From positions 1 through 40,665 of the IMG/VR virus record IMGVR_UViG_3300028025_004032: a stretch of DNA of 40,665 nt, one strand, 5' to 3'. The DNA comes from a virus. Position numbers and translations under genes: made by a program. The notes below the pieces were generated by a model, which did not search any database, had not been told where the DNA came from, and saw only the letters and a list, made by a program, of their open reading frames with translations. Shown here one piece after another: positions 526 through 40,665 of the stretch (positions within the stretch are counted from its first letter, which is position 1; each line of letters starts with the position of its first letter).

Positions 526-1098
526 CTATATATTTATCCATTTATGTGATTTTTTATTAATTATATTTGATATTGTTTTTCTATTCTCACCTAATAATTC
601 GCCTATTTTTTCATATGTCATATTTTGATTTCGATATTCAATAGCTGCTAATATTTTTTCTTTATCTATTTTGGTATTATTACAGTATTTGCTTTTACAC
701 ATTGTACACTTTACTCCCTTTTTAATACAATGCATTACATTTTCTTTTTGCGTAGCCCATTCTAAATTGTCAACCATATTGTTTTGTTTATTACTGTCAA
801 TATGATTTACCGTTAATTTATTATCAGGATTTTCAATAAATGTTTCCGCTACCAATCTATGAACTAATTTTTGATAAGGCTTTTTATCTTTATATAAACC
901 TACAACTAAATATCCATTGTTTGCTAAAGTTGTTTTCATTTGTTTTCCTTTAACTAATCTAGATATTATTTCTTGTTTTTTAGTTCCACCGCTTGTAAAT
1001 AATGGAAAATCTTGCAACTTATCTAAGCTCCTAATATTACCATAATTACTTACTTCATATAATCCTTCATACCCTAAAATTGGCAAATATTTTTCCAT
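526..1098 (-). CDS. NUMOD4-HNH homing endonuclease
   Basis: A 190-residue free-standing homing endonuclease. A NUMOD4 motif opens the protein (LGYEGLYEVSNYGNIRSL). The HNH core follows at about residues 78-118: HRLVAETFIENPDN, VNHIDSNKQNNMVDNLEWAT. The C-terminal 50 residues (ILAAIEYRNQNMTYEKIGELLGENRKTISNIINKK, given here only as a description of a helix-turn-helix) probably contact the target DNA. The start overlaps the endolysin stop by one base (TAATG), so translation is coupled. Such genes are selfish elements cutting related phage genomes; a second one lies at 26136-26681. Confidence 0.9.
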   Translation of the reverse strand: MEKYLPILGYEGLYEVSNYGNIRSLDKLQDFPLFTSGGTKKQEIISRLVKGKQMKTTLANNGYLVVGLYKDKKPYQKLVHRLVAETFIENPDNKLTVNHIDSNKQNNMVDNLEWATQKENVMHCIKKGVKCTMCKSKYCNNTKIDKEKILAAIEYRNQNMTYEKIGELLGENRKTISNIINKKSHKWINI

Positions 1099-3804: not shown

Positions 3805-4580
3805 ACGTTTCGGCTTAAAGTGGTTTCAAATGCTATAATAGCAGTTCTAAAATTAGCTTCCTCAGTGTCATTAAGTGATTCTTGAATACTAGCAAATGCT
3901 AAATTGCCTACAGAATATTCAGCTCCAACTGTATTATTTGACGCTAATAAATAGTAGGTTCCATTTATATTCGCTTGGTTAGTTGCTGTAGATGTTATAG
4001 CCGATGTACCTGGTCTGTAATATCTAAAACTACCTGATGCACTTTTACTCATTGTAAAAACTCCTCTTTGTGTTCCAGCTTTAGCTCTTCCAACTTGGCT
4101 AGTTCCTAAGCTAGAATAATCGACATTTGAAAACTCAGGATAAAATCTATTAAATGCCGTACCTCCACTATTAACAACTCCCATTGGCGATCCTACTGTT
4201 AATATATTTCTTATATACATTGAAATGGATTTATTTGTATTTGTTAAATGAGTTGAGTCATTTAAAAATGTATCTGCATAAGCATTCGTTCCATTACTAG
4301 TTATTCCATTTGAATCATGAGTTACCCCGCCAAAAAATTGTAATCTATATGCAGCGTTTAAATCTCTAGGGTCTTTTAAGTTCCATTTGTGAGTGCTAGC
4401 CGTTCCTCCAACTAAAGGATAAATAGCTTTCATTTTAGTCCATATATTGTCAGCTTTCATTTGAACTACCAAAGTATTAATAGCTCCTGAAATAGTAGCG
4501 TCTGTAATTCCAGCAGCGGTTAAGAAAGCCTGCGCATCAGCGTCATAAGGAACTCCAAAAGAATAAGGATTAATTATCAT
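3801..4580 (-). CDS. tail fibre / receptor-binding protein
   Basis: 259 residues. The start resembles N-termini of phage fibre proteins (MIINPYSFG), followed by a helical spacer (QAFLTAAGITDATISGAINT) and then a Ser/Thr/Asn/Gly-rich region with the alternating pattern of a beta-sandwich, for example FRYYRPGTSAI and GTYYLLASNN. LRDLNAAY-like and WNLKDPRDLNAAYRLQF segments recur in Bacteroidetes phage tail proteins. It probably binds the host surface. It overlaps the next fibre gene by four bases. Confidence 0.6.
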   Translation of the reverse strand: MIINPYSFGVPYDADAQAFLTAAGITDATISGAINTLVVQMKADNIWTKMKAIYPLVGGTASTHKWNLKDPRDLNAAYRLQFFGGVTHDSNGITSNGTNAYADTFLNDSTHLTNTNKSISMYIRNILTVGSPMGVVNSGGTAFNRFYPEFSNVDYSSLGTSQVGRAKAGTQRGVFTMSKSASGSFRYYRPGTSAITSTATNQANINGTYYLLASNNTVGAEYSVGNLAFASIQESLNDTEEANFRTAIIAFETTLSRNV

Positions 4581-5518
4581 CTAGCACCAATTAAAGTTAT
4601 TTTTAAACCTTTAGCCGTTCCATTTCCTATCTGGTCAATATCTATTGTAATTTCAGCATCGTCAGTTATTGCACTTGTAGATATTACGGCAGGCGTTGCA
4701 GCTGTTACGCTTGTCTTTTCTGTATTGTCTATTGTCAATTTAGTACTTAATACCGAACTTCCATTTTGATTTATATCGACTGTAAATATACTGCCTGAAC
4801 TTTGAGCGGTTGTAAGTGAAGCACGAACACCTGTCAAAGTAAATGCGCTTGGTACTCTAAAAGTTACTTTTCCAGTTCCTGTAGTTAGTGCTGTAGTTTC
4901 ATCTGAAGCAGCGGCTTGAATATTTACTGGAATACCTGCATGATTATCATATTCCCAAATAGCCGCACCTGTTGTAGAATCAGTACATACATAAATAGTT
5001 CCATCATCTAATGACCAACGGCTTCCTGGCAAATAACCTTTTGTGCCGTCTTCATTTACGGTTGGGGCAGTTGTAAAATTATACAAAGAATGTCTAATAT
5101 AAATACCATTTCCATCCATTACGTAAAGCCTTCCAGCTTCCCACTTTAATTCATAGCCAACTGCACAAATTTGAGCAATACCTTTTGTCCCTCCAAGTCC
5201 TGCATCTATAGTTCCCTCTCTTAGTCTTGAGGTGTTGTCAAAAAGTAATCCTTGACCAGCGTCAAAGCTTATATCATTAGCTCCAGAGGTATTTCCTTCG
5301 TCTAATACCGATTGTAAAGTTGGCACTTCCATTGGAGAAATCTCTACATAAGTAGAACCTGACCATCTGTATAGTTTATTAGTGTCTAAGGTTACATATA
5401 TTATGCTAGTTGAGCCTGTGACTGGCAAAGCTGCATAGTTAGCTACTTCTATAAATTCTTGAGTTCCGCCACCGCCAAAATCAAATATTTTTCCTTTATA
5501 TTCAAAATTTGTTATCAT
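4577..5518 (-). CDS. tail fibre / adhesin-type structural protein
   Basis: 313 residues. The segment ALPVTGSTSIIYVTLDTNK followed by LYRWSGSTYVEIS (about 29-61) is a widely repeated phage tail-fibre motif that forms a small beta-stranded, sometimes trimerising, unit. The C-terminal half is Thr/Ala/Ser-rich beta structure ending in KITLIGAR, like other fibre tips. An N-terminal glycine stretch (FGGGGTQEF) is a flexible joint. It is expected to be a distal tail or receptor-binding component. Confidence 0.65.
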   Translation of the reverse strand: MITNFEYKGKIFDFGGGGTQEFIEVANYAALPVTGSTSIIYVTLDTNKLYRWSGSTYVEISPMEVPTLQSVLDEGNTSGANDISFDAGQGLLFDNTSRLREGTIDAGLGGTKGIAQICAVGYELKWEAGRLYVMDGNGIYIRHSLYNFTTAPTVNEDGTKGYLPGSRWSLDDGTIYVCTDSTTGAAIWEYDNHAGIPVNIQAAASDETTALTTGTGKVTFRVPSAFTLTGVRASLTTAQSSGSIFTVDINQNGSSVLSTKLTIDNTEKTSVTAATPAVISTSAITDDAEITIDIDQIGNGTAKGLKITLIGAR

Positions 5519-5528
5519 TATATTTTAT

Positions 5529-6098
5529 TTAATATGTTTTATTTAGTATGAAAATATCACTATATATTGAGTTTCCTGCATTATTAGACCCCCATTGTAG
5601 GGTAACGTCTAAAGTATTGTTTATTGTAGTATTAAAGGTCGTATTATTAATAACATTAAACGCAAATCCTTGAGTAGATGCATTTGAAGTTTTAAGATAA
5701 TGAAACGAACCTAAGGAAACAATAGAGGCTACAGTTGCACCGCCTATTTGTCTAATAGTAAAATCAATATTTAAACTCCATACATCATTGATAATTGAAT
5801 TTGTTAAAGTTTGCACTCCGCTATCCAATAATACAATATTATTTGTTTTAGTTCTTATTCTTATGGTTTGATTATTTGCGGCATTTAATACTCCACCAAA
5901 AATACATCTAAAACTATCGCCAACTTGAAATCCATTTGCAGGAACGCTTAATGTTCCAACGCCTCCATTTATTAGACTACTTTCAGTTGTAGTTCCTGTT
6001 ATTACTGTACTATTGCCAGTTTGAGCAAATAAACCGTTTGTACTCCCATCTGTAAAGTCAAACAAATCACCAGTGAAGCTAAAACAGCACTTATCCAT
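5529..6098 (-). CDS. putative structural protein, jelly-roll-like
   Basis: 189 residues rich in Thr, Asn, Ser and Gly, predicted all-beta by eye (SLNIDFTIRQIGG, FAFNVINNTTF, LDVTLQWGS). The middle reads like a capsid- or tail-decoration jelly roll of the type that describes a smooth signal plus noise, common in phage fibre proteins. It begins MDKCCF, another cysteine-bearing virion protein. It overlaps the upstream gene by eight bases and stands at the head of the fibre cluster. Confidence 0.55.
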   Translation of the reverse strand: MDKCCFSFTGDLFDFTDGSTNGLFAQTGNSTVITGTTTESSLINGGVGTLSVPANGFQVGDSFRCIFGGVLNAANNQTIRIRTKTNNIVLLDSGVQTLTNSIINDVWSLNIDFTIRQIGGATVASIVSLGSFHYLKTSNASTQGFAFNVINNTTFNTTINNTLDVTLQWGSNNAGNSIYSDIFILNKTY

Positions 6099-15104: not shown

Positions 15105-17525
15105 CTAAGTTATTATTCTGTCTTTAAATCTTCTTAATAGTTTTATTTCTGTTACGTCGTCTTCTAGGTTTGCGCTTATTAAATTGCCATAATAGGTATT
15201 CGTTCCATCGCTAACTTTAAATAAATCGTACTGGTGCGCTCTCATAGCTATTAAATCCAAACTAGATAGCTTTGCAGTTTTGAATGTTATTTGACTTGGA
15301 ACGTATAGATTGTAATCTGTATTTACTGAGCCAAAACCGCTAATAGTTTGGTGAGTTCTTACAGGATTTGCTCTTGGCAACTTACACTCATTTAAACTTT
15401 GATAAGGCTCACCATAAGGATAAGCAGTTCCAGCGGTTGTTATTATATTACTGTTGTAAATTGTACTGCCTTCGTATTTATTGACGGTCAATACTTCTTT
15501 ACTAGCAAATAAACTAAAGCCCCACTTATATAAATGTCTAAATAGATTAAGTGCGGTTGCATATCTTTTATTTACTCCAGCAACAGCCAATCCATCTACT
15601 ATTACGTTGTCTCCTAAAAACCCGCTTGTCTGACTTAAAGTTACATTATAAGTTGTAGCTCCAGAAGCAACAGACGTCCCTGATAACAAAAATATATTTC
15701 TATCAAATTCAAGTTCATCATCTACAGTTCCTAGTCTTAAAGCTCTTGTTATAATGTATTGAGACGCTATAAAATCACTTACTTTTGAATAGTTAGACTC
15801 ACTATCATTGTCTATTGAGTACTGATTTTGCGAACAAAGCTCTTTAGGGCTATCTTTGCTATTGCTATAACCTATTTGAATTTCTTTATAATAAGGTGCT
15901 AAGAATGGAGATATTTCAATAATGCCATCTATTAAATCGGTATCTAAGAATTGATATTGACTTGGCACTAATGTATCCGAATAGAAATCATATACACTCA
16001 TTAATCTTTTTTCCCCTGCTGGGTCTGTGTCATAAAAATATCCAAGTCCGCAGCATACAACCTTTTCAAGTTCCCTAAAAAAGTCGCTAGGCTTAACAAT
16101 AAAATCTGCTATATTTATTTTGCCTCTTATAAAATCACCTCTCGAAAACCATAAGTCTGAAAAGCAATTAGTATCAGCAATGTTTGTATCAGTTCCAAAT
16201 ATTTCATTAAGCATATCCGTTCCTTTATATGCTTTTGTTTTAGTGTGGTATGGAACTATTTCGGAGGCGTTTACTATTGGAGCTTTTACATCTTTTGTCA
16301 ACTTAAATTCAATGTCTATTGTGTTTGATAGCCAATAAGATGCGTTTTTAAATTGTATTTGATTGTAAGGGTAATATTCCCACATACCGGATGAAGGGTC
16401 ATATGTTGGCGATGGGTCTTCTATTTGTTTGTATAAAATTTCGTAATAAATCCAAACTTTTTCCTCTTCTTTTACTTCTAAAGTTAACGAAATTGATTTA
16501 TTGTATGTTAATATATCAGTAGTTGGCGTTGATGTGTTTATTGTTCTACCTGTTACATCTAGTTGATTTTTCATTATGTATCTTGGACTCTCATAATTTT
16601 TCCCAAGAGCTATTATTTCATTAATTTCAGTAAGTTCACATTTAGCCGAAGTTACATCTATTAAATCTAAAGTCAATTGGTCATTAAATGTGTTAATAGT
16701 AAATTCTCCAGCTGATAAGTTATTTTCAAATACAGGCTCAGGCTCTATTTCAGAATATCTGCCACCATAATTAGTTGTTACGGTTCCAGATACGTCGCTA
16801 AAATTCATAATTTTTATTGGAGAACTAGAAGTTATATTAAAATAGTCCATTAATAATCCATTGCTATTTTCTAAATCATTTCTAGTTACATCTACTCTCG
16901 GAAAAATGTAATGAATAATATTTTTATAATAAAATCCTATTGGGAATGGGAGGTATGTATTCGGTATAACAGGAGGCGGACCACCTGGACCTACAGGCGG
17001 TGTTGAATTATATAAGACTGGAAATGGCACCCAACCTTGTGTATGCTCAGTATTTAATGTATCTTGGCTTATTTGAGCATATACATTTTCACTAGCGTAT
17101 GAATATCTTAAAGGTAAATTTCTAATATAAAAATCCTCAGCCGCAGGTAACAATGTGGTCAAATTAACTTCTTTATCTAAGTCTTTTTTCCATAGACTAT
17201 TAGCCTCAATAAGTCCTATTGTGGTATAGTCTCCAAGATTATTATACTTTTTGAAATCTAAATTAAATGTATAAGTTTCCGCATTAGGTCCGCAAGTGTC
17301 AGTTATTTCTATATAACCTGTGGCTTCCACGCCTTTGCTTTCATATTCGGCATCTAGTTCCGTTTTGCCACTCGCACAATAAAATCTTAGTTCTGCTTCT
17401 ATTTTTGTGTCAACACAGCTATATTGAAAGTCTCTATCTAAGGATAATTTAATCACTTCTAAGCCTATTGGCTTGTCTAAAGTGCTTATTTCAATGCCAT
17501 TAATGACTATTTTGGTTACTTCCAT
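15105..17525 (-). CDS. large tail / baseplate hub protein
   Basis: 806 residues starting at the ATG at 17525; a longer start at 17549 lies upstream of the promoter and is not used here. Position next to the tape measure module and a mixed beta composition fit a distal tail/hub protein. FIVKPSDFFRELEKVVCCGLGYFYD (described as about 490-515) and a C-terminal DLIAMRAHQYDLFKV plus YYGNLISANLEDD resemble hub proteins that join fibre and tube. A leaderless start is suggested by a TATATTTG box four bases before the ATG. Confidence 0.55.
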   Translation of the reverse strand: MEVTKIVINGIEISTLDKPIGLEVIKLSLDRDFQYSCVDTKIEAELRFYCASGKTELDAEYESKGVEATGYIEITDTCGPNAETYTFNLDFKKYNNLGDYTTIGLIEANSLWKKDLDKEVNLTTLLPAAEDFYIRNLPLRYSYASENVYAQISQDTLNTEHTQGWVPFPVLYNSTPPVGPGGPPPVIPNTYLPFPIGFYYKNIIHYIFPRVDVTRNDLENSNGLLMDYFNITSSSPIKIMNFSDVSGTVTTNYGGRYSEIEPEPVFENNLSAGEFTINTFNDQLTLDLIDVTSAKCELTEINEIIALGKNYESPRYIMKNQLDVTGRTINTSTPTTDILTYNKSISLTLEVKEEEKVWIYYEILYKQIEDPSPTYDPSSGMWEYYPYNQIQFKNASYWLSNTIDIEFKLTKDVKAPIVNASEIVPYHTKTKAYKGTDMLNEIFGTDTNIADTNCFSDLWFSRGDFIRGKINIADFIVKPSDFFRELEKVVCCGLGYFYDTDPAGEKRLMSVYDFYSDTLVPSQYQFLDTDLIDGIIEISPFLAPYYKEIQIGYSNSKDSPKELCSQNQYSIDNDSESNYSKVSDFIASQYIITRALRLGTVDDELEFDRNIFLLSGTSVASGATTYNVTLSQTSGFLGDNVIVDGLAVAGVNKRYATALNLFRHLYKWGFSLFASKEVLTVNKYEGSTIYNSNIITTAGTAYPYGEPYQSLNECKLPRANPVRTHQTISGFGSVNTDYNLYVPSQITFKTAKLSSLDLIAMRAHQYDLFKVSDGTNTYYGNLISANLEDDVTEIKLLRRFKDRIIT

Positions 17526-17529
17526 TGTG

Positions 17530-17537
17530 CAAATATA
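17530..17537 (-). promoter_or_regulatory. leaderless -7 promoter restarting the tail operon
   Basis: TATATTTG on the minus strand with C and three bases before the ATG at 17525. It restarts transcription of the tail genes beyond the plus-strand lipoprotein cassette and is divergent from the plus-strand box at 17581-17588. Confidence 0.6.
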
Positions 17538-17580
17538 CGAATAAAACATACAAAAAAAGGTGCAATTTGATTATAAGTTG

Positions 17581-17588
17581 TATATTTG
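17581..17588 (+). promoter_or_regulatory. plus-strand -7 promoter for lipoprotein cassette
   Basis: TATATTTG, the only well-placed plus-strand copy noted in the window, 33 bases before the lipoprotein ATG at 17622. The leader is A-rich and ends AAACAAATG, as in the host-type starts. Confidence 0.65.
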
Positions 17589-17621
17589 CAATTGTATTTA
17601 ATTAATCATAAACAAAAACAA

Positions 17622-17804
17622 ATGAAAAAAACACTATTTATTCTATCATTATTTATGATAGCCTCCTGTTCTAAAGATTGCCCGTACAGTAAAGCCGAAC
17701 TAGACAAAATGTTTGAAAGTGAAGTAAAAGCGGCTGGGAGCAATACCCAAAAGATTAATCTAATCATTCAAAAATACAATTTAAAATATAAAGACGCCTG
17801 CTAA
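17622..17804 (+). CDS. small phage lipoprotein, possible exclusion factor
   Basis: 60 residues from the ATG at 17622; an in-frame ATG at 17586 lies inside the promoter. The signal peptide MKKTLFILSLFMIASC ends with a lipobox, IASC, so Cys16 would be lipidated. The mature part starts CSKDCPYSK; Lys-Asp just behind the cysteine recalls the lipoprotein export signal of flavobacteria, hinting at the cell surface. The rest is a short helical domain. Small phage lipoproteins can block superinfection by masking receptors (T5 Llp is the model); that role is inference. Confidence 0.75.
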   Translation: MKKTLFILSLFMIASCSKDCPYSKAELDKMFESEVKAAGSNTQKINLIIQKYNLKYKDAC

Positions 17805-18274
17805 TGAAAAGACCACTCCCACACATTATAGCTGTATATAATTGCAATGCCTTTGGACTTGACGCTAAGGTTTACGATAAGATATACGGAAGCAAAGGAT
17901 ACGACCTGTATGCTGATTATTGCAAAGCCAATGAAACCGACAATTTAGAAACCGAGATACTAGACCAAAGTGAATTTAGAAGAATTGATAAGAGCAAGTA
18001 TTATGAAATAAATAAAGAGGAACTCGGTACTATCTATGAATACAAGGCAAACAAAATGCTGACATTTCAAATAGCTAAAAAGGAAATATCTAGGCTCAAT
18101 AGAGTTTTGCAATTATGCGACTTAGACCCTAGCGAACTAACTGAAAAGGATAAAAAGAGTTTAGAGCCTTATAGCGTCTTTATGCTTAAAGCCAAAAAGG
18201 AAATATTGCAGGATATAGACTACGTTAATAAATGCGTCGAGCTATGTAAGCTGAAGACCTTTTACCAAGTATAA
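17804..18274 (+). CDS. hypothetical protein paired with lipoprotein
   Basis: 156 residues, overlapping the lipoprotein stop by one base (TAATG), so the two are co-expressed. No family is recognised. It has no signal peptide; the C-terminal half is helical and charged (FQIAKKEISRLNRVLQLCDL, LKAKKEILQDIDYVNKCVELCKL) with several cysteines. The last 13 bases overlap the tape measure gene tail to tail. Its codon usage resembles the phage. A cytoplasmic partner of the lipoprotein, or a former part of a tail gene, are both open. Confidence 0.65.
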   Translation: MKRPLPHIIAVYNCNAFGLDAKVYDKIYGSKGYDLYADYCKANETDNLETEILDQSEFRRIDKSKYYEINKEELGTIYEYKANKMLTFQIAKKEISRLNRVLQLCDLDPSELTEKDKKSLEPYSVFMLKAKKEILQDIDYVNKCVELCKLKTFYQV

Positions 18275-21216
18275 TCTTTTTTAGCAAGTCCTTTTATGCT
18301 TTGGTTAGTCTCAACTAGCCTTCTATCTATTGACTTCAATGTAGAACTAGAAACCCTTGCTATGAGGTTATTTTCCGCTTCTATTATTGAACTCCTATAG
18401 TTTTGAGCGGCTTGACTTTCTTTAGCTTGTAGTGCTGGCATTACATAGTGTCGGTTAATGTAAGCGTCTCTTTCACTATCTGACATATTTATAGCCTCTA
18501 ATAAGCCTAGATTATCTCCTTTCATAGCTTGAGACCTTCTAGTTATAAACTCATTGCCTTCGGCTTCTATTAAGACCCCACCTGCAGCATGAGGCTTACC
18601 GCTAATCATTCCATTTATATCCGAGCTTGGAACTGCTCCACCCTTTGCAAACTTTGGTATAGGTTGTGCTGATATTAGTGCTATCTGTGCCGCTCCTAAT
18701 GCTGCTGCTATTGCTGCAAGTATAGGTCCCCCTTTAACAAATCCAGTTACAACCGCAACTGCTGTATTAATTATCGCATCAAATATAGCTTTACGTTTGT
18801 CCGCTTCGGCTTGTTTACGTTTAATTTCCTTTTCTTTTAATGCATACTTTTGTCTAATCAAATCCTTTTTCTGCTCGTTATCACCTGCTAATCTTAGCTC
18901 TTCTTCCTGTTGAGCTTGTAAGGCAGCCAACTCTTCTTCCCTACGTTTAGTGTCTGCAGCAAATAAAGTATTTGAAACGGTTTGAGCTACAGCTCCAGCG
19001 GCTTGTGCTGCGGCTGCGGCTTTTTCTCCAGGAGTTGCACCTTTTTTTTCTAAGGTCTTTTGCAAATTTTCAAGAGTACCCTTTACTTTGTTTACATCAG
19101 CAGGGTTTATTCCTATTTGTAAAAGTATTCCATTTTGAGCAAATTCTATTAATTCATTAACCGCTTCTTTTAATAATTTCTCTCTTTTTTTATTGTTTTC
19201 AATTTCTTTATCTAATCTCTTATCCGCTTCTTGATTAGTGAATGTAGTAATGTCTTCTGCTGCTTTTTTTACAGTACCAGACCATTTACTAGCTATTAAT
19301 ATTTTTGATTCTAATGTGGTTAATTCTAAATCTTTTATTTTTTCATTGTATTGTTCCTCACTTATTTCACCATTTGCTAACCTAGTTTTTAAAATTAGCG
19401 ATTCCTGTTTGGAGAAATTTTCAGCTTTTTGTATTTCATTTAGATACTTTTCCTCTAATTTTTTATCTTCAGCATCCTTTTTTTCTTTTAGATATTTGTC
19501 ATCAATGGCTTTTAAGTCAGCTGTTCTTTTAGCTTCTAATCCTGTTGTATCGAGTCCATATTGTTTAGCCGTTTCAATTAATTCAAAATACTTATCTTGA
19601 ACTTCCCTTTTTTCTAAATCTTGCTGGGATAGTGTAGCGTCAAAAGCATCTTGTTTTATTTTTGATTCTTTTTGAAATTGCTGTATTCTAAATTCTTCTA
19701 AATCCTTTGCAGCTTTTTTTTCCGCTTCTATTCTTTTCTTATTTTTTTCTTCTTGCGTTTGATTATCCTTTTCAGCTTGTTTTTCGGCTTCATCATTTTT
19801 TCTTTTAGTTTCAGCTGCGTCAATTACCGACAATTCATTTTGCAAGTCTTTGTATTTCTTTGCGTCTTCACCATATAGCGCACCTTTTTTATCAACTTTT
19901 TTAGTTAGTAGATTAATTTCATTTTGTGCTGCTTCTTTTTGAAGTTTAGCTATTTCAGCTTCTTTGCCACCCTGAGCAGTTAATAACTTAACTTGCCTTT
20001 CAATGCCTTGATTTTTTAGCTTGGTAAATTTATCTAATGCTGAAATTTGTCTTTCCGCTTGACTTGTTATACCTACTAAGTCTGTGAATTTTTGAACTAA
20101 ATTTCCCACTGACCTAGTGAATCCACCTAATGGACTTTTACTAATCCATGCAGATATAGAGTCAAAGTTAGCTATGACCATACCCAATCCGACTACTAAA
20201 GCTCCTATACCTGTGGATATTATAGCACCTCTCAATAATTTAAAACCTGTGGTAGTTACATTAGTTGCAACTCCGAAAGCGGTTTGAACTGCTGTTGCTA
20301 TAGTTGTAGCTCGATTATATAAAAATTGGAATGCAGTTGAATCTTTTATTACAGTTCCTAAGTTTTTAAAGCTATCTACGCTATCACCTACACTTTGCAA
20401 GCCTTGAGATAAAGCCATTGCAGAATTAACTTTCAATAGAGCCTTTTCGACTTCTTCACTCTTAACCCCAAAAGCACCGATAGCACCTTGAACGGCTGTA
20501 AATCCACCTACAACACCTTGAATACTTCCTGATAATGCTTTAAATTTAGCATCAGGATTAAATGCCTCAGTTAAATCCCTAGCATCTCCTATTGCATCTT
20601 TTAATTCTGAAGCTCTTTTTGCAGCTTCAATAGCTTGTACTGATGTAGCTCCGAACTTAATAGAAAGCTCTGCCACTTCTTGTTGAGCTTGTCTCATTTG
20701 AGCTTTTAATGAAACTACCCTCTCTTCACTTTTAGCAAATGAAGTTGTAGTAGTGTCACCAAGTTTCTTAGTTAATAGTTCCTGCTCTCTTAATAGTTTT
20801 GAAAATCCTTCGGTATTATCTAATCCAGCCTTTTGCCATTCTTTTATTTTGGTATTAACTACGTTAAGCCTATCTGTATATTTTTGAGTAACTGCATCAA
20901 GTTTAACGGTTTCTCCAGTTAGTTTAACTAATGCAGATTCGGTAAGTCTTATAGAAGCACTTAGCTCATTGAATGTTTTTTTATCTGTAGCTGAAGCGAG
21001 TTGAGTCTTTAAATTCTCCAGCATTGATTTTAATGCAGGTGCATTATTTGCTATCTTCTTTAACTCAGCATCTATTTTGCTAAAATCAGCTCCTAATTTT
21101 ATAGGGTTCTTTTCGATTTCAGTTATTCCTGTATCGACTATCTTTTTTGCATTTTGTACATCCGCTTGTAATTGTCCATTATCTAAGCGGACTTTGGCTA
21201 TTATTTCTTCAACCAT
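18262..21216 (-). CDS. tape measure protein
   Basis: 984 residues, the longest gene here. It begins with a short beta segment (IIAKVRLDNGQLQADVQNAK), runs through long coiled coils, has hydrophobic stretches near 320-350 (GAIISTGIGALVVGLGMVIA) and 810-860 (INTAVAVVTGFV, ILAAIAAALGAAQIALISA), and a Lys/Glu-rich central part. This is the classic layout of siphovirus tape measure proteins, which set tail length and enter the host envelope. At about 0.15 nm per residue the tail would be near 150 nm. It directly follows the chaperone frames. Confidence 0.9.
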   Translation of the reverse strand: MVEEIIAKVRLDNGQLQADVQNAKKIVDTGITEIEKNPIKLGADFSKIDAELKKIANNAPALKSMLENLKTQLASATDKKTFNELSASIRLTESALVKLTGETVKLDAVTQKYTDRLNVVNTKIKEWQKAGLDNTEGFSKLLREQELLTKKLGDTTTTSFAKSEERVVSLKAQMRQAQQEVAELSIKFGATSVQAIEAAKRASELKDAIGDARDLTEAFNPDAKFKALSGSIQGVVGGFTAVQGAIGAFGVKSEEVEKALLKVNSAMALSQGLQSVGDSVDSFKNLGTVIKDSTAFQFLYNRATTIATAVQTAFGVATNVTTTGFKLLRGAIISTGIGALVVGLGMVIANFDSISAWISKSPLGGFTRSVGNLVQKFTDLVGITSQAERQISALDKFTKLKNQGIERQVKLLTAQGGKEAEIAKLQKEAAQNEINLLTKKVDKKGALYGEDAKKYKDLQNELSVIDAAETKRKNDEAEKQAEKDNQTQEEKNKKRIEAEKKAAKDLEEFRIQQFQKESKIKQDAFDATLSQQDLEKREVQDKYFELIETAKQYGLDTTGLEAKRTADLKAIDDKYLKEKKDAEDKKLEEKYLNEIQKAENFSKQESLILKTRLANGEISEEQYNEKIKDLELTTLESKILIASKWSGTVKKAAEDITTFTNQEADKRLDKEIENNKKREKLLKEAVNELIEFAQNGILLQIGINPADVNKVKGTLENLQKTLEKKGATPGEKAAAAAQAAGAVAQTVSNTLFAADTKRREEELAALQAQQEEELRLAGDNEQKKDLIRQKYALKEKEIKRKQAEADKRKAIFDAIINTAVAVVTGFVKGGPILAAIAAALGAAQIALISAQPIPKFAKGGAVPSSDINGMISGKPHAAGGVLIEAEGNEFITRRSQAMKGDNLGLLEAINMSDSERDAYINRHYVMPALQAKESQAAQNYRSSIIEAENNLIARVSSSTLKSIDRRLVETNQSIKGLAKKDYTW

Positions 21217-26135: not shown

Positions 26136-26681
26136 TTAAATATGACACCATCTTTTGTTTTTAATTATCTTATGTATTGTTGTGTCTCTAACATTTAATT
26201 TTTTAGCGACCTTTGTTTTATTGAATTTTGGATTAATTTTATTTAGCCTTCTAATAGCCAACACTTGTTTTTCTGTTAATTTAGCGTTTTTAGAATTTTC
26301 CCCTTTTGCATTTATTAATTTTTTTTCTATTGCATGTTTGATGTTTTCAATACGAGAACACCACTCTAAATTATTAAAAACATTGTTTGATTTATTGCCA
26401 TCTTTATGATTTACCTGAGGCTTATTGTCAGGATTTTCTATAAAATGTATAGCAACAAGCCTATGTATATAAAATAATTTTCTTTTATTATTTATTGAAA
26501 CATAAATTTGTTTATATCCTTTTCCATTATCTTGTGACTTGCAAATTCTATCTGATATTGTCCTAAAACCAGATTTTTGAATAAATGAATTTACATTTCT
26601 TTTTTTTCTTTTAACTCTACCTAAATTAGATATTTGATAAAATCCTTGATATTCAGGAATATCCTTCCATATTTCTTCCAT
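26136..26681 (-). CDS. NUMOD4-HNH homing endonuclease, second copy
   Basis: 181 residues from the ATG at 26681 (MEEIWKDIPEYQGFYQISN), which fits the NUMOD4 start; an upstream in-frame GTG at 26726 falls in the structured leader. HNH core HRLVAIHFIENPDN and VNHKDGNKSNNVFNNLEWCS at about 92-130; a C-terminal helix-turn-helix (KVAKKLNVRDTTIHKIIKNK) for DNA binding. Only the HNH core is clearly shared with the copy at 526-1098. The leader with an eight-base stem precedes it. Confidence 0.9.
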   Translation of the reverse strand: MEEIWKDIPEYQGFYQISNLGRVKRKKRNVNSFIQKSGFRTISDRICKSQDNGKGYKQIYVSINNKRKLFYIHRLVAIHFIENPDNKPQVNHKDGNKSNNVFNNLEWCSRIENIKHAIEKKLINAKGENSKNAKLTEKQVLAIRRLNKINPKFNKTKVAKKLNVRDTTIHKIIKNKRWCHI

Positions 26682-26711
26682 ATATTTAAAAAAATAAAGC
26701 CCATTTATTAT

Positions 26712-26799
26712 CATTGAGGGTCTCACTTCTCAAATCAAACAAACAGGCTATGTTCTTTATTCCGCTATTGTGAGACCGCAGATTTTCAATGCAAATATA
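26712..26799 (-). promoter_or_regulatory. promoter and paired leader before homing endonuclease
   Basis: A TATATTTG box (26792-26799) is followed by a leader in which GGTCTCAC (26770-26777) pairs with GTGAGACC (26719-26726); CATTGA and TCAATG (26786-26791 with 26712-26717) form an outer six-base match. The loop is 43 bases. The pairing could fold the leader RNA or mark insertion borders. Confidence 0.5.
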
Positions 26800-27495: not shown

Positions 27496-28209
27496 CTAAA
27501 ATAACCGCAGTTGTGATTTAAAGTCATTAAAACGCTTTTCTTGTTTCTCATAATATTCTTGGTCTATTTCAAATCCTATAAAGTTGAACCCGCCTTTATA
27601 TGCTGCAATCCTACTACTTCCACTTCCTAAATGTGTATCTAAAATCAAATCTCCCTCCTTCGCATATTTTGAAAGTATCCATTCATATAACGCTACTGGC
27701 TTTTGTGTGGGATGTATTCTAATTTCTTTGTCCTTCATATTTTGCTGTAACATTCCATTCCATCGGTAAGTGAATTTCCTAACCGCACTTTCAAAACTTG
27801 TCCAAGCTAATTCACAATCAGCAAAATCTGCAGAGTTTAATTTGTCCCACACAAGCCAGCAACTTGATGGCTGTAATCCAAAATAATTTCCTCCCCAAAT
27901 GATTTGATTTTTAGATACTCTTTGAAGCTCCAAAAAATATTCCTCCGTTGGTATTGCCTTGTCCCAATCTTTTTTTCCATAATCAGTAACCTTTCCTTTG
28001 TTGGAGCTTCCCCACGTTCCTTTGCTTGCGTTAATGCCATAAGGCGGGTCAACTATTGCCAAATCAAAGTGGTTATCGTTAAAGCGTTTTAATGCCTTTA
28101 CACAATCTTCCAAATAAACCTCCGAAGAAGGCACTGCTGGTAACACGTGCTTTGCAAAAGCGGGGGTTTCCGTTTTCAAAGGAACATTCTCGTTAAATAT
28201 ATCATTCAT
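27496..28209 (-). CDS. DNA methyltransferase (beta-class, N6-A or N4-C)
   Basis: 237 residues. DLAIVDPPYGI at about 49-59 is catalytic motif IV; the SAM-binding motif I follows near the C-terminus as THLGSGSSRIAAYKGGFNFIGFEID, and HPTQKPVALYEWIL is the usual preceding helix. This order (IV before I) marks the beta class. No restriction partner is present, so protection from host restriction or gene regulation are the likely roles. Both flanks are G+C-richer than the surroundings. Confidence 0.9.
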   Translation of the reverse strand: MNDIFNENVPLKTETPAFAKHVLPAVPSSEVYLEDCVKALKRFNDNHFDLAIVDPPYGINASKGTWGSSNKGKVTDYGKKDWDKAIPTEEYFLELQRVSKNQIIWGGNYFGLQPSSCWLVWDKLNSADFADCELAWTSFESAVRKFTYRWNGMLQQNMKDKEIRIHPTQKPVALYEWILSKYAKEGDLILDTHLGSGSSRIAAYKGGFNFIGFEIDQEYYEKQEKRFNDFKSQLRLF

Positions 28210-36902: not shown

Positions 36903-37451
36903 TAGCGTATTTCTAAACCAGTGTGCCTTATCTTCTATAACCGCTCTCACTTCTTGAGTCTCGGATTCCATTAATTCAAAACCTCTCTTTTCAAATTCTG
37001 GTATTATTTCATGATTATCTAAACAATTAACGTGTCCAAATCCAGCCTGACCTCTAACTGCCCATGAAGTAATTAAGTATTTTTCTGCGTGCTTTGTTAT
37101 ATTGTCTAAGTATATTTTCATAAACTTTTTAGGTATATGTTCACCTACTTCCAAACTAATAGCCAACTCACATTGATAATATTTATCACTCAAGTCAGTT
37201 GTTAAATCATCTTCATATATATTTTCAAATGCTGCAAACTTAGGCTTATTACCTTCAACTCCTATTGCAAAGTCTAGTATAGGCGATAGGTCTTTTAAAT
37301 AGTTACCAAGTCCGCAGCCGAAGTCAGTTAGTGATTTAATCTTTTTAATTTCGCAAAAGTCATAAATCCATTTACTTAAATTCTCTGAATGTACATGGTG
37401 ATTGTGCGCAGTCTCACCATTCCAAAATCCTGTATTTGCTATTTCGTTCAT
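36885..37451 (-). CDS. SAM-dependent methyltransferase (class I)
   Basis: 188 residues. SLTDFGCGLGNYLKDL (about 40-55) is the SAM-binding motif I, then ELAISLEVGEHIP as the motif after strand 4. The C-terminal half (GFGHVNCLDNHEIIPEFEKRGF) fits small methyltransferases acting on sugars or lipids. Last gene of the glycan operon, overlapping the previous gene by four bases (ATGA). Substrate unknown; sugar methylation is inferred from its neighbours. Confidence 0.75.
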   Translation of the reverse strand: MNEIANTGFWNGETAHNHHVHSENLSKWIYDFCEIKKIKSLTDFGCGLGNYLKDLSPILDFAIGVEGNKPKFAAFENIYEDDLTTDLSDKYYQCELAISLEVGEHIPKKFMKIYLDNITKHAEKYLITSWAVRGQAGFGHVNCLDNHEIIPEFEKRGFELMESETQEVRAVIEDKAHWFRNTLFVFKK

Positions 37452-38014
37452 ATTACTTTTTTAAACCAACAATCGTTACTTATTTTATCTGGAGTTCCTA
37501 GCAGTTCATTGACCGCTTTATTGACTCCTTCCCATGCATTATAATCATGCCCTGATATTACACCGCCTTTTTTCATTTTAGGTAGCCAACTTTCAATATC
37601 TTTTTTCACCGCTTCGTAGCTATGTCCAGCGTCTATGAAACAAATGTCCACTGAATTATTATCAAATAAATTTGCAGATTCATGAGATAGTGACTTAATC
37701 TTTTGAAATTTGCCCTCCAAGTGCTTAGTATTCGTATCAAAATCTATTTCAATATCTGATATTCCTTTGTATGCTTCCACTTCCTTATTGTCATTGCTAT
37801 CGGTATGACCTTCAAAGCTATCTACTGTGTAATATTTAACCAGCTTTCCACTATTGACAATTTCGGTGACTATAAATGAAGTTGATTTGCCTTTAAAGCA
37901 ACCTAGCTCCACAAATGTACCGCCCTCTGGACATTGCTCTAATAGTTCTAGGTATTCATTTTCCATGTTAAACCAACCTTCTATAGATTGGTAATTGTGT
38001 TTTATTTTTTTCAT
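37448..38014 (-). CDS. SAM-dependent methyltransferase (Methyltransf_24 type)
   Basis: 188 residues. GTFVELGCFKGKSTSFI (about 32-48) is motif I; DICFIDAGHSYEAVKKDIESW with GGVISGHDYN is the catechol-methyltransferase-like pattern of Methyltransf_24 proteins, which often methylate sugars. Both overlaps to neighbours are four bases. It probably works on the same glycan as the glycosyltransferases of the operon. Confidence 0.8.
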   Translation of the reverse strand: MKKIKHNYQSIEGWFNMENEYLELLEQCPEGGTFVELGCFKGKSTSFIVTEIVNSGKLVKYYTVDSFEGHTDSNDNKEVEAYKGISDIEIDFDTNTKHLEGKFQKIKSLSHESANLFDNNSVDICFIDAGHSYEAVKKDIESWLPKMKKGGVISGHDYNAWEGVNKAVNELLGTPDKISNDCWFKKVI

Positions 38015-38712
38015 CTTATTAATTTAGCTAGTTCTAATCCGTGTTTATAATTTGCTCTAACAGTCTCTTCATTTTGTAAATAATGGTGTCCCCATTTATT
38101 TCTTTTATTCTCATCCGACATTCTATCTGCATTCCTTTTGTATTTGTCTACTAGAAATTGCTCATTAATTAAAATCATGTGGTATAGATTAACCAATCCT
38201 TTTGCATAATTTACCACTCCTTTCGGTGTGCAAGTATGGCAGCCAGCTTCGTAGTTTATTTCATTAATATATTTCTTATTAAATAGTATTGATTTATCGT
38301 ATTGCTCCGCTCTAACTCCGTGCTTTATATCTTCAAGTTCAGTTAAGCCTTCCACATTGCACATATTATATCCAGTTGCTGAAATTATTGTCTTTTTGCT
38401 CGTTTCTAATTTGATTAAATCACTTTCGTTAACGTCTACAAATTCGTCACAATCTACCACCATAACCCAGTCAGTCTCTGCTAACTTCCACACATTGTTT
38501 TTTATTGTCAAATAAGCACTATCTGATAGCTTATTATCTGTTGAATAACTAACCACTTCACAAGCTAAATCATAGGCTATATGCTCTGTACTATCTGTGC
38601 TTTCATTATCATAAACTACTATTTTGCAATTAGGAAAACGCTCTCTATACCACTTTACAAAGTAAGGCAAAACCATTTCCTCGTTATAGCAAATTGTATA
38701 AATTGTTAACAT
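38011..38712 (-). CDS. GT2-type glycosyltransferase
   Basis: 233 residues with a GT-A fold: LTIYTICYNEEMVLPYFVKWY at the N-terminus, IVVYDNESTDST (about 31-42) and WVMVVDCDEFVDV with the DxD motif (D93-x-D95 region) for metal and nucleotide-sugar. The C-terminus has GCHTCTPKG and WGHHY. No membrane helix, so it acts in the cytoplasm. It could glycosylate virion protein or a surface polysaccharide precursor. Confidence 0.85.
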   Translation of the reverse strand: MLTIYTICYNEEMVLPYFVKWYRERFPNCKIVVYDNESTDSTEHIAYDLACEVVSYSTDNKLSDSAYLTIKNNVWKLAETDWVMVVDCDEFVDVNESDLIKLETSKKTIISATGYNMCNVEGLTELEDIKHGVRAEQYDKSILFNKKYINEINYEAGCHTCTPKGVVNYAKGLVNLYHMILINEQFLVDKYKRNADRMSDENKRNKWGHHYLQNEETVRANYKHGLELAKLIR

Positions 38713-39374
38713 AAGTCCAAAGTTTTTATTCCTTTATTGTCTATCCATACACTTAATAACCTCTCTAAAATAAACGTGTGCATAGTATAATGGTCTAATC
38801 CTGTAGCTTCTTTTAATCTTTCCTTTGGCAAACCTTTGTATCCTGAATCCATCCACGCCAATTCTTTATACTTACCTTCCAATAATTCTACAGCTTGTCT
38901 TAATAGGTTTTGGTATTCGACAAATACTCCCTTTTTAGCTATGAAAAAATTAGAATAGATAGTGTGCTTAGGTTCGCTAACTTTAAGCCCTAAATCGGTG
39001 CAAATATTAGTGAATAGTTCCGTAAATCCACCGTGATTAATTTCGCTCAATTCTAAGTAAGGTTTTGCCAAAGGTTCGCAAAGGTTAATGACCTCATACT
39101 GAGTGTAGGCTTTTTCTTTAAGTAGGTTAAATAAAACTCGCTTATTCATTCCTGTCTTTGCTCTGAACTTCCAACTAAAAAAGCCTGTGTATTTGCTTAC
39201 TATCTCAGTGTTTAGGATTACATTGTACTCAAATAGATATGACTTTTCGGCTATTGTGCTAACCTTATTGTCAATTCTTATGTACTCTGTATTTTGCGAA
39301 TCCTTAAAACATATTCCATATATGTCTATGTCTAATTTCGTTGGCTTATTAAGGCTCTGAATGTATTTTATCAT
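38706..39374 (-). CDS. probable glycosyltransferase, DUF4422-like
   Basis: 222 residues. FSWKFRAKTGMNKRVLFNLL, then YSNFFIAKKGVFVEYQNLLRQAVELLE and TMHTFILERLLSVWIDNKG follow the order of DUF4422-type capsule glycosyltransferases (N-x-F-I/M, Y/F-xx-Y, F-xx-ERLL-x-V-W). The match is by pattern. It overlaps the GT2 gene by seven bases and the methyltransferase by four, inside the glycan operon. Confidence 0.6.
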   Translation of the reverse strand: MIKYIQSLNKPTKLDIDIYGICFKDSQNTEYIRIDNKVSTIAEKSYLFEYNVILNTEIVSKYTGFFSWKFRAKTGMNKRVLFNLLKEKAYTQYEVINLCEPLAKPYLELSEINHGGFTELFTNICTDLGLKVSEPKHTIYSNFFIAKKGVFVEYQNLLRQAVELLEGKYKELAWMDSGYKGLPKERLKEATGLDHYTMHTFILERLLSVWIDNKGIKTLDLC

Positions 39375-40132
39375 TTGAAAATATTTGTTTGATTTTTTTT
39401 ATGCCATTCTTCGACCCTATTTAAAATAATATCGTAATACTTTTGTTCCTTTTCCATTACTATAAATTGTCTATTGGTATTCAAACAAGCAATAGCAGTC
39501 GTTCCGCTTCCAGCACAATTATCTAAAACCAAATCATTCTCTTTACTGTAAGTTTTTGCAAGGTATTCAAACAACGCAACAGGTTTCTGAGTTGGATGCA
39601 ATCCAACTTCTGTATTAAATTTCTGTATACTACTTGGTACTCTTAAATCTTCATTTAATACTCTTGTTTCGGTTTCAGTCATACCGTTGTACGATTCTCT
39701 TTTCCCTGTATTACTTGGGTTTATAGCATACTTTGCCCTTGACTTTCCACCTTCTGCTCTTGGTTGCATTATTGGGTAATAATTAGATACTCCTTTACAA
39801 AAAACAATAACGCTTTCGTGTTCCTTCATAGGTTGGTATTTTGTTGTTGCAAAATTACTACCTCGGTTCTTTTGCCAAATCCACTCACACTTAAATATTT
39901 TCGGATTACTCATTATCAATGCACTTGTAAAAGGTTGTGAAGCAGTCAGCACTATTGCTCCGTTTATCTTTATAATTCTTTCATATTGTTCCCATAGTTT
40001 GTCAAAAGGTATAACTGCATCCCATTTGCAAGCCGTTGTTCCGTAAGGTAAATCACAAAGTATCATATCAATACTTCCGTTTGGTATATCCTTCATAAGT
40101 TCTAAACAATCGCCATTTAATATTTGATTCAT
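39371..40132 (-). CDS. DNA methyltransferase (beta-class, N6-adenine type)
   Basis: 253 residues. ILCDLPYGTTACKWD (about 24-38) is catalytic motif IV; LDNCAGSGTTAIACLNTNRQFIVME near the C-terminus is motif I, with HPTQKPVALFEYL before it. Motif IV before I marks the beta class. It differs clearly from the methyltransferase at 27496-28209. Its place inside a glycosyltransferase operon with four-base overlaps on both sides is odd for a pure protection gene. Confidence 0.9.
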   Translation of the reverse strand: MNQILNGDCLELMKDIPNGSIDMILCDLPYGTTACKWDAVIPFDKLWEQYERIIKINGAIVLTASQPFTSALIMSNPKIFKCEWIWQKNRGSNFATTKYQPMKEHESVIVFCKGVSNYYPIMQPRAEGGKSRAKYAINPSNTGKRESYNGMTETETRVLNEDLRVPSSIQKFNTEVGLHPTQKPVALFEYLAKTYSKENDLVLDNCAGSGTTAIACLNTNRQFIVMEKEQKYYDIILNRVEEWHKKNQTNIFK

Positions 40133-40665
40133 TTCAAACTATCTATTATCTGCAATCTTTTTTGAGTTATTTTTTTAATGTCGTTTCGCTCAATAAACCA
40201 TTCTACTTGTAATGCTTGCATATCTGAATAATAGTCTTTAAAATTAATTAGTCTTTTTACCGTCTTTTCAAAGGTTTTATCATTTACTTTTAGTGCCTTG
40301 GTACGTTCATAGCAACCTCCGTTGGTAACACCTACAATTCCCATACTTGCATACTCTAAAGCTCTTAAATCACTTTTGCATAGCGTGAAAGTATCATTAA
40401 AGCTAGGCAGCAGTCCTATGGTTATATCTTTGTAAAGCTCCATGTAGTTTTGATTTGTAGGCTTTCGCACTCCAATATCGTACTTATTATTCCCTGACAT
40501 TATTTTTAGATACCATTCGCTTTGAATCTCGTCTTTTGTATAGCCTCCTAAAATCCTTTTAGCTTTGTACTCAGCTTGCAAAGGTTTTGACATTGTGAAT
40601 AGATTATTGACGTGACCAGCTCCACCTACCCAGCCTATGGCGTGTTCTGTAGGTTCGTTTTTTAA
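40129..40665 (-). CDS. GT4-like glycosyltransferase, N-terminus outside window
   Basis: The frame is open to the right edge, giving at least 178 residues; an inner ATG at 40593 is not the real start, since the upstream part reads ...HAIGWVGGAGHVNNLF, the GT-B nucleotide-binding start of the C-terminal domain. IGLLPSFNDTFTLCKSDLRALEYASMG, then IVGVTNGGCYERT carry the K-S-x-L-R-x-L-E-Y-A-x-x-G pattern of GT4 proteins. First visible gene of the glycan operon. Confidence 0.75.
   Translation of the reverse strand, partial: LKNEPTEHAIGWVGGAGHVNNLFTMSKPLQAEYKAKRILGGYTKDEIQSEWYLKIMSGNNKYDIGVRKPTNQNYMELYKDITIGLLPSFNDTFTLCKSDLRALEYASMGIVGVTNGGCYERTKALKVNDKTFEKTVKRLINFKDYYSDMQALQVEWFIERNDIKKITQKRLQIIDSLK

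What the first reader, a model, noticed from the sequence alone, without database searches (positions are those of the whole stretch)
17530..18274. Inverted two-gene lipoprotein cassette (moron) in the tail operon
The only plus-strand genes here sit inside the late minus-strand operon, between tape measure and hub gene, with a promoter of their own and a fresh minus-strand promoter behind. The first encodes a 60-residue lipoprotein with lipobox IASC and CSKD, possibly surface-exported in flavobacteria; the second is a coupled unknown. Such cassettes typically change the host: superinfection exclusion or envelope effects. The pair is new to me.
Basis: partly seen in the sequence, partly recalled or inferred. 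Interest (0 to 1): 0.7.

Follow-up and report, generated by a model that had tools for sequence, protein, structure and literature searches.

The report
Phage lipoprotein resembling tape-measure hairpin
A small optional gene cassette, sitting backwards in a bacterial virus's tail operon, makes a membrane-anchored protein whose outer part resembles a conserved piece of the tail protein that guides viral DNA into cells, so it may stop other viruses from injecting their DNA into an already infected cell.

Summary
On the plus strand, a 60-residue lipoprotein gene (17622-17804) and a coupled 156-residue gene (17804-18274, stop/start overlap TAATG) lie between tape-measure (TMP) and next tail gene of a minus-strand phage. 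Both are under purifying selection. The cassette behaves as a moron. It is absent from two relatives, where the flanking genes are 53 bp apart. The lipoprotein is itself optional: present in the window and 3 of 8 relatives, both states at the two ends of one contig. It recurs (75-80% identical) in unrelated ribonucleotide-reductase phages.

New finding: the lipoprotein's mature part is a predicted two-helix hairpin significantly similar to residues 764-797 of the phage's own TMP (about 50% identity over 34 residues; 19-22 bits, at most 8 in shuffled controls; hhalign P = 6.5e-7). In the TMP this hairpin opens the conserved C-terminal block, just before the hydrophobic segments. Other Flavobacterium-phage TMPs carry a related module.

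Best reading: a lipid-anchored TMP mimic causing superinfection exclusion at genome injection. It works like Streptococcus Ltp (reported target: TMP) but is not a member of that family. Exclusion and TMP binding are inferred, not shown. The surface-export claim is weak (CSKDC lacks the second acidic residue). The 156-residue protein stays unexplained.

The parts
17581..17588 (+). Bacteroidota-type -7 promoter box TATATTTG for the cassette
   Evidence: Motif scan; conserved in L002 and L010, TACATTTG in the L003/L005/L009 clade; no -33 TTG at the usual spacing; not tested experimentally
17622..17804 (+). 60-aa lipoprotein, signal peptide 1-15, lipidated Cys16, predicted helical hairpin 24-57, invariant Cys20 and C-terminal Cys60
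   Evidence: hairpin resembles TMP 764-797
17804..18274 (+). 156-aa soluble protein of unknown fold, overlapping the lipoprotein stop by TAATG; core residues 55-86 nearly invariant
   Evidence: no family match
18262..21216 (-). tape-measure protein, 984 aa; its 3' end overlaps the end of the second cassette gene by 13 bp
   Evidence: tblastn to annotated tape-measure proteins; length and hydrophobic segments
18826..18927 (-). TMP residues 764-797, the hairpin that the lipoprotein resembles, just before the hydrophobic segments (about 809-854)
17530..17537 (-). -7 box TATATTTG of the next tail gene, 4 nt before its likely ATG (17525)
   Evidence: an equivalent box in cassette-free L025/L026
15105..17525 (-). 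next tail gene ('hub' by position only), variable between relatives (52-82% where full length; one N-terminal fragment at 93%)
   Evidence: no family match

Best explanation
A mobile moron site between TMP and the next tail gene carries a lipoprotein that acts on the envelope of the infected cell. Shown: the cassette is an optional insertion; the lipoprotein is under purifying selection, moves between unrelated phages, and has a mature domain similar to the conserved hairpin of the TMP that precedes its hydrophobic segments. [quoted passage not shown] It then interferes with an incoming TMP, either by binding it hairpin-to-hairpin or by occupying the host partner that the TMP hairpin uses, so that genomes of related superinfecting phages do not enter. 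The companion 156-aa protein is a soluble cytoplasmic accessory that also works without the lipoprotein; its role is not resolved, and host takeover or counter-defence is my guess.
For: Lipoprotein profile hits the TMP of every relative with a readable TMP, cassette-free ones included (E 1e-7 to 6e-5). In the window's proteome the TMP is the only other hit: 19-21 bits, next 4 bits, reversed TMPs below 0, 4000 locally shuffled TMPs at most 7.8. Single-stretch scores against 177,635 PDB sequences were under 6 bits in the alignments shown. hhalign 92%, P 6.5e-7. The hairpin starts the conserved TMP block (0.89 against a mean of 0.45), just before hydrophobic segments. A related module occurs in TMPs of other phages. 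AF2: confident two-helix hairpin. Empty sites and an 8-bp-bounded indel. Horizontal spread to unrelated phages and between clades. Precedent: Ltp of TP-J34 is reported to act on the TMP and to be overcome by TMP changes (PMC4465916, PMC10883804).
Against: No binding, localisation or exclusion was tested. Similarity over 34 residues could reflect a recurring helical module with another role. The lipoprotein is absent in about half the relatives with no obvious link to TMP hairpin sequence. Expression timing is unknown; a late-only promoter would weaken exclusion. No integrase was found among the genes scanned, so prophage immunity is not an obvious reason for it. The 156-aa gene, not the lipoprotein, is the more constant part of the cassette.
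Confidence: 0.45

Rival explanations
1. Receptor-blocking exclusion lipoprotein of the T5 Llp / Cor / Rtp45 kind: it binds an outer-membrane receptor from the periplasm and stops adsorption.
For: Same size class, lipid anchor, terminal cysteines that could form a disulphide like Llp Cys11-Cys58, and a place next to a variable tail gene, as llp lies next to pb5 (PMC9586334; PMC12685063). The published surface signal is incomplete, which fits a periplasmic location.
Against: It does not explain the significant similarity to the phage's TMP. In the RNR phages the gene sits in a nucleotide-metabolism operon.
Confidence: 0.22
2. Decoy or counter-defence: the TMP-like hairpin occupies a host defence protein that senses tape-measure proteins at injection.
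For: SNIPE binds siphovirus TMPs during injection (PMC13190303). Optional, mobile genes are typical of counter-defence.
Against: A protein made after injection comes too late for its own genome, so it would help only co- or later-infecting phages. SNIPE is at the inner membrane, the lipoprotein probably at the outer membrane. No such defence was looked for in the unknown host.
Confidence: 0.08
3. Tail or virion component: the lipoprotein helps assembly or is packaged with the TMP.
For: Position beside the TMP gene and shared hairpin.
Against: Absent from close relatives with the same tail genes; opposite strand and own promoter; present in unrelated phages outside tail genes; carries a lipoprotein signal.
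Confidence: 0.05
4. Lysis gene (outer-membrane spanin subunit) with the second gene as partner.
For: About 60-residue outer-membrane lipoprotein, as lambda Rz1 (recalled from memory).
Against: The partner has no transmembrane segment (maximum mean hydropathy 0.78); optional in relatives; not next to a recognised lysis gene.
Confidence: 0.03
5. The TMP resemblance is coincidental (generic helical hairpin) and the lipoprotein's role is unrelated to injection.
For: Short, charged helical segments recur; Foldseek finds nothing significant.
Against: Order-dependent score far above shuffled and reversed controls; matches only this place in the TMP, in all relatives.
Confidence: 0.17

Closest known systems
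Ltp of Streptococcus thermophilus phage TP-J34
   Same: Phage-encoded lipoprotein with helical extracytoplasmic part; reported to block injection through the tape-measure protein (PMC4465916, PMC10883804)
   Different: Gram-positive prophage protein; no Pfam match here even at E up to 10; resemblance of the blocker itself to the TMP is not reported in the papers read
T5 Llp, T1/phi80/N15 Cor, Rtp45
   Same: Small phage lipoprotein of a Gram-negative host, 60-residue class, possible disulphide joining the ends, gene beside tail genes
   Different: They act on the receptor, with no TMP similarity reported in the papers read; here the mature part is a helical hairpin like the TMP
HK97 gp15 moron
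   Same: Moron in a phage genome that blocks DNA entry; escape by exchanging tail tube and TMP genes (PMC10883804)
   Different: gp15 is a predicted inner-membrane protein, not a lipoprotein
Tape-measure proteins of Flavobacterium phages (e.g. vB_FspS_hattifnatt9-1)
   Same: Share the hairpin module with this phage's TMP (37.7% over 53 residues, E 8e-3)
   Different: Full tape-measure proteins, not lipid anchored

Membership tests
Phage moron | Extra gene(s) inserted between two genes that are adjacent in relatives | tested here: met
   L025/L026: TMP stop and next gene 53 bp apart, no cassette
Phage moron | Own promoter | tested here: inconclusive
   Conserved -7 box 41 nt upstream, no -33 element; transcription not measured
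Phage moron | Own terminator | tested here: inconclusive
   One weak stem at 18303-18320, not above shuffles
Bacterial lipoprotein (signal peptidase II) | n-region, h-region, lipobox [LVI][ASTVI][GAS]C | tested here: met
   MKKTLFILSLFMIASC; conserved in all relatives
Bacteroidota surface lipoprotein (LES) | C-X-K-(D/E)2 or S-D-D type acidic signal after Cys | tested here: not met
   C-S-K-D-C: only one acidic residue; rule from PMC5080379
Ltp superinfection-exclusion lipoproteins | Sequence match to the Pfam model of that family | tested here: not met
   No Pfam family for any of six members at E up to 10
Ltp superinfection-exclusion lipoproteins | Blocks DNA injection via tape-measure protein | not testable with these tools
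   Only the sequence resemblance to TMP was shown
Llp/Cor receptor-blocking lipoproteins | Fold or sequence relationship | tested here: inconclusive
   No match by Foldseek, VIA-align or HMM; these cannot exclude a relationship
Two-component spanin | Partner with N-terminal transmembrane segment | tested here: not met
   Second gene has no hydrophobic segment
TMP hairpin module | Order-dependent similarity to TMP 764-797 | tested here: met
   19-22 bits against at most 7.8 in shuffles; hhalign P 6.5e-7

The most novel reading that the evidence does not exclude
A new class of superinfection-exclusion factor: a lipid-anchored copy of the tape-measure protein's own injection hairpin, spread horizontally among unrelated Bacteroidota phages, that acts as a dominant-negative on incoming tape-measure proteins or takes up their host docking partner.
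Probability: 0.35. Interest if true: 0.8.

Novelty: new variant of a known kind. Interest (0 to 1): 0.6.

Why it matters
How siphophage tape-measure proteins carry DNA through the periplasm and inner membrane is poorly understood, and very little is known in Bacteroidota. A natural fragment mimic marks the part of the TMP that probably makes the critical contact, gives a ready-made probe for the host partner, and suggests a simple way for exclusion genes to arise from the phage's own tail gene.

Tried and rejected
Second cassette gene as a mimic: profile comparison with the TMP C-terminus, and its profile against the translated window and nine related or reference loci, found nothing. Its AF2 model is too poor to search (mean pLDDT 51). 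Host copies: neither cassette gene was found in 84,980 bacterial and archaeal species genomes, which argues against a recent host origin but only covers close relatives. GenBank phages: no match to either cassette gene. PADLOC and NCBIfam: nothing for the cassette genes. Fold searches of the hairpin gave no significant match; one sub-threshold BFVD row (E 8, rmsd 0.5 over 33 columns) is a Flavobacterium phage tape-measure protein, mentioned only as consistent. Search for further lipoproteins beside 26 distant TMP loci found none. One search with a recalled lipoprotein leader was a wasted call. T5 gene order could not be read from a record, so it rests on PMC9586334. PHROG matches of the lipoprotein (phrog_15404, E 0.005; phrog_4895, E 0.03) are unknown families and too weak to use.

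Full report
What is there. The window is a 40.7-kb virus record whose genes run on the minus strand: large terminase, a tape-measure protein (TMP, 18262-21216), further tail genes, and replication genes including a primase/helicase and an Erf-like protein. The nearest named relative by primase/helicase is phage vB_RanS_PJN03 (51.7%), followed among named hosts by Tenacibaculum, Cellulophaga and Flavobacterium phages, so the host is probably a flavobacterium-type Bacteroidota. On the plus strand lie a 60-residue lipoprotein gene (17622-17804) and a 156-residue gene (17804-18274) that starts inside the stop codon of the first (TAATG). A Bacteroidota-type -7 box precedes them. Codon comparison shows strong purifying selection on both.

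The cassette is optional and modular. All eight related contigs in which the second gene was found, and a ninth that breaks off inside it, carry it inverted at the same junction. The lipoprotein is present in three of those eight and cleanly absent in others. One 43-kb contig (IMGVR_UViG_3300037485_000534) has the lipoprotein at one end and lacks it at the other; the two versions differ by a precise start-codon-to-start-codon indel bounded by the repeat AATGAAAA, most simply two co-existing strains. One relative (L009) adds a third plus-strand gene upstream. In L025 and L026 (TMP 63% and next gene 55% identical) there is no cassette at all: TMP stop and next ATG are 53 bp apart, and the next gene still has its own promoter box at the same spacing.

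The lipoprotein travels alone. It is also found, 75-80% identical, in three contigs of unrelated phages, beside ribonucleotide reductase genes and without the second gene. Between the two clades of the window's own family its synonymous divergence (dS 0.7-0.9) is lower than that of the neighbouring second gene, which is saturated, which fits recent exchange of the lipoprotein.

The lipoprotein resembles the tape-measure protein. Searching the related genomes with the lipoprotein profile gave, besides the lipoproteins, a single place inside the TMP gene in each genome where that part is held. In the window the match is lipoprotein 25-58 against TMP 764-797 (AELDKMFESEVKAAGSNTQKINLIIQKYNLKYKD / AALQAQQEEELRLAGDNEQKKDLIRQKYALKEKE), with pairwise identities to the various TMPs of about 50% over 34 residues. 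Controls: next window protein 4 bits, reversed TMPs below zero, 4000 locally shuffled TMPs at most 7.8 bits, against 19-22 bits observed; single-stretch scores shown for the PDB were under 6 bits; profile-profile P = 6.5e-7. In the TMP the N-terminal 675 residues vary freely, while this hairpin begins the strongly conserved C-terminal block and is followed directly by hydrophobic segments at about 809-854. More distant phages, including Flavobacterium phages with annotated tape-measure proteins, share the module; the search patterns included this motif, so its frequency there is not a measure. AF2 predicts a confident two-helix hairpin for the mature lipoprotein. The cysteines at 20 and 60 are invariant in all complete sequences and flank the hairpin; a disulphide is inferred.

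Mechanism. Tape-measure proteins are thought to form the conduit for DNA through the envelope, and superinfection-exclusion proteins are known that act there: Ltp of TP-J34 is reported to target the TMP and is overcome by TMP changes, and HK97 gp15 is escaped by exchanging tail tube and TMP genes (PMC4465916; PMC10883804). A lipid-anchored TMP hairpin in the periplasm could bind an incoming TMP or occupy its partner. The published lipoprotein export signal requires K-(D/E)2 after the cysteine (PMC5080379), which CSKDC does not meet, so a periplasmic location is more likely than surface export, as for T5 Llp (PMC9586334). That the protein is lipidated, periplasmic, made early and exclusion-active is inference. 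The role of the 156-residue protein is not known; it is soluble by sequence, has no family match, and its predicted structure is unreliable.

Verdict. The literature searches found no precedent for an exclusion lipoprotein that copies part of the TMP, but only open-licence papers were searched.

Noticed in passing
L009:7388-7720: A third plus-strand ORF (110 aa, MENTVKLFYEG...) with its own -7 box stands before the lipoprotein in one relative; no PHROG, PADLOC or NCBIfam match.
   Followed up: partly
L002/L010 and L005/L035: Two near-complete relatives (43.0 and 42.0 kb contigs) break exactly at this cassette; in one the two ends carry different cassette states, in the other the end runs into an Illumina-adapter-like sequence.
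   Followed up: partly
L031, L032, L033 around 4410-6066: RNR-encoding phages carry the lipoprotein between a 146-aa membrane-anchored protein and a 290-aa cysteine-rich protein (GCRDQNNNPYCQYCYVHRF) that looks like a radical-SAM-type enzyme.
   Followed up: no
window 15105-17525: The next tail gene is unusually variable among relatives (52-82% where full length) while several neighbours are 90% or more identical, and appears to be transcribed leaderless (box 4 nt before ATG).
   Followed up: no
window 19327-19395 (TMP residues 608-630): Weak SHOCT-domain match in the TMP (E 2.4e-5, below the curated cut-off).
   Followed up: no
window 526-1098 and 26136-26726: Two HNH endonucleases with the same PHROG matches; the second has a relative directly beside the terminase gene in L025/L026, suggesting mobile endonucleases.
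   Followed up: no
window 37448-40593 and 27496-28209: Several DNA methyltransferases and glycosyltransferase-like genes cluster at one end.
   Followed up: no
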